A stretch of DNA of 64,000 nt from Fragum whitleyi (lineage: Eukaryota > Mollusca > Bivalvia > Cardiida > Cardiidae), in contig OX411545.1 of assembly GCA_948146395.1 (NCBI GenBank), forward strand, positions 20,715,526-20,779,525. The letters run 5' to 3'. Below are positions 26,111 through 58,213 of this stretch, piece by piece. Numbering within the stretch: the first letter of the stretch is position 1; every line of letters starts with the position of its first letter. The translations under genes and the position numbers were made by a program. The notes beneath the pieces are model-generated. The model did not search any database and was not told the DNA's origin. It saw only the letters and a list, made by a program, of their open reading frames with translations.

Positions 26111-26207
26111 TCACTTCTTTTTCTTGGTTTTCTTGATCTTGGCAGCTTGTGCTTTCAGGACTCGGACAACAATCTTCTGTTCTTCCACCAGGAAAGCCCG
26201 AATAATC
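26111..26207 (-). CDS. RPL34: RPL34 terminal coding exon
   Basis: On the reverse strand, acceptor CTATTTTCAG precedes the exon. The first G completes Arg, then 31 codons end in TGA (26111-26113). The product AFLVEEQKIVVRVLKAQ plus a poly-Lys tail is the eL34 C-terminus. An ATTAAA polyadenylation-like signal (26086-26091) lies about 20 bases past the stop, consistent with a short ribosomal-protein 3' UTR. Confidence 0.95.

Positions 26208-58213: not shown

What the first reader, a model, noticed from the sequence alone, without database searches (positions are those of the whole stretch)
26111..58213. RPL34 with a ~32-kb intron acting as a snoRNA host
Two eL34 exons join in phase across 31.9 kb, whereas ribosomal protein genes usually have short introns. 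The intron carries about 22 snoRNA-like copies, all on the RPL34 sense strand. Intronic snoRNAs in ribosomal protein genes are established; this degree of copy amplification and intron expansion is, as far as I know, unusual.
Basis: partly seen in the sequence, partly recalled or inferred. Interest (0 to 1): 0.88.

Follow-up and report, generated by a model that had tools for sequence, protein, structure and literature searches.

The report
snoRNA arrays inside one RPL34 gene
In this likely bivalve genome, the one RPL34 ribosomal-protein gene that a search found carries 39 snoRNA-like copies of five families, some of them degenerate, in two long predicted introns, and searches with members of these families found matches nowhere else, so the gene likely doubles as an amplified source of small RNAs that would guide chemical marking of ribosomal RNA.

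Summary
Two eL34 exons (58213-58110, 26207-26112, minus strand) join in phase across 31,902 nt. The intron holds 26 snoRNA-like copies: C/D families F (4), A/D (10), C (7); H/ACA family B (5). The preceding 8,812-nt intron holds 13 copies of an H/ACA family, E. All 39 lie on the RPL34 strand. Searches of the 1.22-Gb own genome with one member each of A, D, B, C, E, F matched only inside this gene. Copies arose by local DNA duplication. In five duplicate pairs with testable flanks, box-to-box cores are 98-100% identical and flanks 67-92%, so many copies are likely under selection; at least 7 of the 26 look degenerate. The A/D guide pairs with 28S UGCCCAGUGCUC and shares its guide word with human SNORD88 (LSU-C3680). 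Families C and F likely target 28S and 18S, on weaker evidence. Expression, splicing and modification are untested, and no copy reaches an Rfam gathering score. Best reading: RPL34 is a cis-amplified snoRNA host. The kind is known; unusual are the scale, many copies per intron, and H/ACA families amplified beside C/D families in one host.

The parts
58110..58213 (-). RPL34 coding exon (IKPARPKELMSMSKRLKTVSRCYGGSLSHKCVRD(R))
   Evidence: tblastn; Pfam; splice sites
26112..26207 (-). RPL34 last coding exon, to the stop codon
26208..58109 (-). predicted 31,902-nt RPL34 intron
   Evidence: canonical GT/AG ends and in-phase join; no RNA evidence
27482..27563 (-). F copy 1, box C/D snoRNA-like
28210..28291 (-). 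F copy 2, box C/D snoRNA-like
28659..28740 (-). F copy 3, box C/D snoRNA-like
29883..29964 (-). F copy 4, box C/D snoRNA-like
30977..31052 (-). A copy (A/D family), box C/D, SNORD88-like guide
31813..31886 (-). A copy (A/D family), box C/D, SNORD88-like guide
33081..33154 (-). A copy (A/D family), box C/D, SNORD88-like guide
35075..35148 (-). A copy (A/D family), box C/D, SNORD88-like guide
41951..42729 (-). tandem array, period 159, of five D copies (A/D family); four with perfect boxes (42521-42465, 42362-42306, 42203-42147, 42050-41994), the fifth (42691-42619) with a damaged C box
29738..29792 (-). diverged A/D copy with a degenerate C box
31093..31212 (-). B copy, H/ACA-like, 5' lower stem lost
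31454..31578 (-). B copy, H/ACA-like
32486..32606 (-). B copy, H/ACA-like, folds into two hairpins (z -4.2)
34717..34841 (-). B copy, H/ACA-like
35706..35826 (-). B copy, H/ACA-like
38424..38485 (-). C copy, box C/D boxes intact, no terminal stem found
38926..38987 (-). C copy, box C/D boxes intact, no terminal stem found
39351..39413 (-). C copy, box C/D boxes intact, no terminal stem found
31707..31770 (-). degenerate C copy; identity to its duplicates is flank-like
32725..32788 (-). degenerate C copy; identity to its duplicates is flank-like
34970..35032 (-). degenerate C copy; identity to its duplicates is flank-like
38346..38401 (-). degenerate C copy
59745..62935 (-). 13 copies of H/ACA-like family E in the preceding intron: nine with both hairpins, four partial

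Best explanation
The one RPL34 gene that a search found in this genome carries five families of snoRNA-like sequence (three C/D, two H/ACA), multiplied by local DNA duplication inside two predicted introns, and it likely works as an amplified snoRNA host whose introns would be processed into guides for rRNA modification. Predicted steps: RPL34 is transcribed; splicing, or cuts within the intron, releases the intron RNA; C/D copies are trimmed around their terminal stem and H/ACA copies around their hairpins. The A/D family would direct 2'-O-methylation of the 28S C that matches human LSU-C3680, and families C and F would direct methylation in 28S and 18S. Copies that keep boxes and guides are likely kept by selection for dose; others decay. 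Shown: exons, copies, strand, boxes, core conservation, A/D stem covariation, guide complementarity, and confinement to this gene for the six stretches searched. Inferred: splicing, processing, methylation, the dosage benefit.
For: All 39 copies on the gene strand; unseeded scan 12 minus to 2 plus, against 0.96 per strand per 31.9 kb in random own-genome sequence. Genome-wide matches of A (4), F (4), E (12), B (5), D (5), C (3) all lie in RPL34. Cores more identical than duplicated flanks: p<0.05 in 11 of 12 overlapping alignments; with box-set bounds no flank window reaches the core in 4 of 5 testable pairs. A/D terminal stem 95.8% paired, both-side changes in 4 of 6 pairs, covariation score reached by 0 of 500 shuffles. 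A/D guide pairs with 28S in 5 of 5 loci tested, sharing AGCACTGGGC with SNORD88 as implied by a published antisense oligo. B folds at z -4.2.
Against: No RNA data. No copy passes an Rfam gathering score, and SNORD88 is not among the 25 weak matches. The A/D D' box is ATGA, not CTGA. Family C lacks a terminal stem. At least 7 of 26 intron copies look degenerate. Family C and F target matches are significant in one locus each and not in the others. The D-side guides show no clear rRNA target and the H/ACA pockets none. The F stem gives no significant signal; two of the five A/D stem measures do not exceed shuffles (141/500, 474/500). The E consensus has an unfavourable covariation term and single E folds are modest (z -1.2 to -2.2). 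The nearest C/D copy is about 1.27 kb from the acceptor, far from the vertebrate optimum.
Confidence: 0.75

Rival explanations
1. Mostly neutral debris: segmental and tandem duplication in a repeat-rich intron multiplied a few ancestral snoRNA genes, and only one or two copies per family are active.
For: At least 7 of 26 copies degenerate; four C copies evolve like flanks where tested; the 145-bp satellite alone is 6.8 kb of the intron and SINEs and foldbacks are present; no RNA data.
Against: Box-defined cores of A, F and D copies stay nearly identical while their duplicated flanks diverge; compensatory changes in the A/D stem; 12 copies keep perfect boxes and a terminal stem.
Confidence: 0.2
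2. The snoRNA arrays are independent non-coding transcription units nested in RPL34, with their own promoters, and not products of the RPL34 intron.
For: Copies sit far from splice sites (nearest C/D copy about 1.27 kb, many in one intron), unlike the vertebrate rule. No promoter was searched for.
Against: All 39 copies share the RPL34 strand, which independent units need not do; six family stretches are found only in this gene.
Confidence: 0.15
3. The two exons do not belong to one transcript (assembly join, or pieces of two RPL34 copies), so there is no 32-kb intron.
For: No transcript examined. Other RP genes sampled here have shorter gaps between exon matches: RPS6 3.8 kb, RPS8 1.4 and 2.4 kb. 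A stretch of about residues 23-26 was not placed.
Against: The window lies in a 96.5-Mb contig; the eL34 search hits only this gene; four coding exons lie in order on one strand. Two further RPL34 introns are also long, 8.8 and about 14.7 kb.
Confidence: 0.05

Closest known systems
Human C/D families duplicated in cis within one host gene, e.g. SNORD58 copies in RPL17 (PMC8178906, abstract and passages seen)
   Same: Several members of one C/D family in one ribosomal-protein host, put down to recombination in cis.
   Different: Three most expressed members there against 4-10 per family here. In humans copies sit in different introns; here many share one intron. Of human H/ACA families with two or more expressed members only 7.3% keep them in one host; here both H/ACA families are confined to one.
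Mammalian SNORD115/SNORD116 arrays (recalled; one passage on SNORD116 position seen in PMC8162545)
   Same: Large tandem arrays of C/D snoRNAs in introns of one host transcript.
   Different: Non-coding host and orphan guides, as recalled; here a ribosomal-protein gene, mixed C/D and H/ACA, and a guide matching a conserved 28S site.
snoRNAs in ribosomal-protein introns of Drosophila and sponges (PMC2246290 and PMC3412847, passages seen)
   Same: RP introns as snoRNA hosts; 27 cytoplasmic RP genes host snoRNAs in Drosophila.
   Different: RP introns there are short (longest sponge RP intron 2,263 bp; human RP mean 760 bp); the passages seen describe no such amplification and name no snoRNA in RPL34.
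SNORD88 (human guide of LSU-C3680; PMC10911272, passages seen)
   Same: Shares AGCACTGGGC, the 28S-complementary word, read from the published antisense oligo.
   Different: Not matched by Rfam among the weak hits; D' box ATGA here; ten copies in one intron here, three human copies.

Membership tests
Ribosomal protein eL34 | Passes the Ribosomal_L34e profile | tested here: met
   66 aa, 53.2 bits, cut-off 27; nearest named hit Mercenaria eL34, 89%
Box C/D snoRNA | C box (RTGATGA) and D box (CTGA) at snoRNA spacing with a terminal stem | tested here: met
   12 of 21 C/D-family copies in the intron (A 4, D 4, F 4) pass the strict scan; family C has boxes in 3 of 7 but no stem
Box C/D snoRNA | 10-21-nt rRNA complementarity just upstream of D or D' | tested here: met
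   A/D: 10-13 nt to 28S in 5 of 5 loci tested, shorter in L008. For C and F met in one locus each and not significant in the others
Box C/D snoRNA | Stable RNA bound by fibrillarin/NOP58 | not testable with these tools
   no RNA or protein data
Box H/ACA snoRNA | Hairpin-hinge-hairpin-tail with H box and ACA | tested here: inconclusive
   B: two hairpins, AGAGTA hinge, ATA in place of ACA. E: RNAalifold gives two hairpins, A-rich hinge and ACA in most copies, but covariation term unfavourable and one of three single folds differs
Box H/ACA snoRNA | Pocket complementary to a rRNA uridine | tested here: inconclusive
   no consistent excess over shuffled arms
SNORD88 | Guide for LSU-C3680 | tested here: met
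   shares AGCACTGGGC with SNORD88 as implied by the oligo in PMC10911272; same 28S site pairs. The SNORD88 D' register is recalled
SNORD88 | Match to the Rfam SNORD88 model | tested here: not met
   not among the 25 matches at E up to 5 in 26000-64000
Intronic snoRNA host gene | snoRNA units within introns on the host strand | tested here: met
   39 of 39 on the RPL34 strand, between predicted exons
Intronic snoRNA host gene | Stable snoRNAs processed from the spliced intron | not testable with these tools
   no transcript data

The most novel reading that the evidence does not exclude
RPL34 in this animal has become a dedicated snoRNA factory: selection for guide dose multiplied C/D and H/ACA genes together inside the introns of one ribosomal-protein gene, inflating its coding span to over 55 kb. 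Its many-copy introns are processed by a route that does not depend on position relative to splice sites, and the A and D subfamilies have diverged a second guide toward different targets.
Probability: 0.4. Interest if true: 0.78.

Novelty: new variant of a known kind. Interest (0 to 1): 0.66.

Why it matters
It offers a natural experiment on snoRNA dose. Every genome match found for the six family stretches searched sits in one ribosomal-protein gene, which would tie guide output to one RP transcript. H/ACA families, which in humans mostly sit in several hosts and are thought to have spread by retrotransposition (PMC8178906, passages), are amplified here in cis. Comparing related bivalves would show whether intron growth followed copy gain. 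Copies many kilobases from any splice site make it testable how multi-snoRNA introns are processed outside vertebrates.

Tried and rejected
Rfam at gathering level: one tRNA-type hit in the window and none in three upstream loci. Sub-threshold hits of F to SNORD103/85 and of B to SNORA58 were not taken as homology: the F guide covers 18S GGAGGGCAAGUC, not the SNORD103 site as I recall it.

Family G (2 copies, 42974-44256) was left out of the counts: its folds are no better than shuffles. Of the 14 E rows, the weakest (59730-59664, 13.6 bits) is not counted; four counted E copies are partial (three with an internal deletion, one with only the 3' part).

One search aligned 18 pairs: 3 were dropped because the aligner locked onto another repeat, 10 had too little flank to give a window, 5 remained. 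In one of the 5, 18 of 554 flank windows reached the core. One search left out alignments under 150 columns, without a shared core, or with under 50 flank columns, and its core bounds came partly from the search itself. One search used 5 of the 8 rDNA loci; one search used 6 of 8 (L002 and L005 unused).

Searches of viral contigs for 28S, for the A/D motif and for eL34 gave nothing usable. H/ACA target scan inconclusive. Literature: RPL34 with snoRNA and intron gave 18 papers, none whose title or abstract start reports RPL34 as a snoRNA host (listing; passages of one); snoRNA with mollusc, bivalve or oyster terms showed no such report in the listings, nor did searches on tandem copies. That is not proof of absence from print.

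Full report
The gene. The nearest named protein is Mercenaria mercenaria eL34, 89% identical over 86% of the query, so a bivalve is likely; the species is not established. The junction is CAG|GTAAAT ... TTTCAG|GAT and the intron is 31,902 nt.

Beyond the window. The window is C3:20715526-20779525 of a 1.22-Gb genome in 38 contigs. An eL34 search of that genome returns two places, both in this gene; that search missed the two shortest exons, so isolated short exons elsewhere would be missed too. Fetched flanks add an exon at C3:20782630-20782551, which gives an 8,812-nt intron 5' of exon 58213, and a first coding exon with its ATG at C3:20797379, about 14.7 kb further on. About four residues between those two exons were not placed. 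The coding span is about 55.7 kb. In the same genome, exon matches of RPS6 are 3.8 kb apart and those of one RPS8 locus 1.4 and 2.4 kb apart; these are two genes only, and unmatched exons may lie in the gaps. Reported RP introns elsewhere are short: human mean 760 bp, longest sponge RP intron 2,263 bp (PMC3412847, passages).

The copies. Iterated nhmmer on both strands gives F 4, A/D 10, B 5 and C 7 inside the 31.9-kb intron, that is 26, and 13 copies of E in the preceding intron, all on the minus strand. The seeds were chosen on the minus strand, so an unseeded test was added. A strict C/D scan finds 12 minus-strand hits, each an A, D or F copy in the intron, against 2 unrelated plus-strand hits, one of them in the intron; Markov sequence gives 2.55 per strand. 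Twenty stretches of this genome (200 kb) hold 12 hits on both strands together, 0.96 per strand per 31.9 kb, and no copy of any family, while a window SINE and the 145-bp satellite are found 20 and 19 times.

Confined to one gene. Whole-genome DNA searches with one member each return A 4, F 4, E 12, B 5, D 5 and C 3 matches, all within RPL34. The tool scores only its best candidates, and it did not list the diverged copies that nhmmer finds, so diverged copies elsewhere are not excluded. Family G was not searched.

How they multiplied. Copies share flanking homology in direct orientation, and D is a tandem array with period 159. This points to local DNA duplication, not retroposition.

Selection. 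In 12 overlapping duplicate alignments cores are more identical than flanks with p<0.05 in 11. A cores reach 0.99-1.00 and F 0.99, flanks 0.73-0.90; the degenerate C copies score 0.82-0.87, like flanks. Those core bounds came partly from the search. With bounds set by the boxes, five pairs were testable: cores 0.98-1.00, flanks 0.67-0.92; no flank window reaches the core in four, and 18 of 554 do in the fifth. I take these to lie in the neighbouring family B copy, which I did not check. Six D pairs give cores 0.94-0.99 and flanks 0.79-0.88. The A/D terminal stem pairs in 95.8% of cells, with both-side changes in 4 of 6 pairs; 0 of 500 shuffles and no slid version reach its covariation score, though two other measures are not exceptional (141/500, 474/500). 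Related copies make the shuffle figure indicative only. The F stem gives no significant signal.

Guides. Eukaryotic rDNA was taken from contigs inside prokaryote records. The A/D guide GAGCAYTGGGC pairs with 28S UGCCCAGUGCUC in 5 of 5 loci tested, of 8 held; shuffled guides match or beat it in 0-4 of 40 trials per locus. A sixth locus, L008, gives a shorter match. A published antisense oligo against human SNORD88 (PMC10911272, passages) implies a SNORD88 sequence with the same AGCACTGGGC, the guide of LSU-C3680; that the register to its D' box is also the same rests on my recall. Family C pairs CTTTCCCTCAC with 28S GUGAGGGAAAG in L003 (0/40), not significantly in the other four loci (11-35 of 40). 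F pairs GGCTTGCCCTCT with 18S GGAGGGCAAGUC in L004 (2/40), not in the other four (4-35 of 40). The full C and F sites were found only in L003 and L004. The D-side guides differ between A and D and show no clear rRNA target. H/ACA pockets were inconclusive.

H/ACA shape. One B copy was folded: hairpin-hinge-hairpin at z -4.2. The RNAalifold consensus of eight E copies (of 13) is two hairpins around an A-rich hinge followed by ACA, but with an unfavourable covariation term; three single E folds have z -1.2 to -2.2 and one lacks the second hairpin in that form. Nine E copies keep both hairpins and four are partial (by eye).

Departures from the textbook. Vertebrate C/D snoRNAs favour about 50 nt before the branch point (PMC8162545, passage). 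Here the nearest C/D copy is about 1.27 kb from the acceptor and many share one intron, so processing would need another route. Two F and three A copies have terminal stems of 8-9 pairs. In humans 59.5% of C/D families with two or more expressed members keep them in one host, but only 7.3% of such H/ACA families do (PMC8178906, passage). Here both classes are amplified in one host.

Verdict. Confirmed and extended: a new variant of a known kind, a cis-amplified snoRNA host. Everything about RNA is inference.

Noticed in passing
4986-7505: A 2.5-kb near-perfect palindrome: two arms of 1,260 bp, 92% identical.
   Followed up: partly
58110-58213 and L011: This eL34 lacks two of the zinc-finger cysteines seen in most bivalve hits (CGDS and SHKC), as in Sinanodonta woodiana (P0002), although it is the only RPL34 that the genome search found.
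   Followed up: partly
45859-52643; also 3030-4757: A 145-bp satellite makes up 6,785 bp of the 31.9-kb intron; it recurs in the window and in 19 nhmmer matches over 200 kb of the genome.
   Followed up: partly
17768-18044, 60306-60577, 11342-11499, 24512-24701, 35842-36030, 63450-63770: tRNA-headed SINE copies sharing one body; one of them interrupts the family E array.
   Followed up: no
36370-38190: A likely DNA transposon of about 1.8 kb with terminal inverted repeats (ACTGCAACTCCATTA).
   Followed up: no
33730-34705: A foldback element, arms of about 350 bp at 85% identity, between snoRNA copies.
   Followed up: no
42974-44256: Two 94%-identical repeats of about 208 bp (family G) with an H-box-like motif but no unusual fold: an H/ACA remnant or another repeat.
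   Followed up: partly
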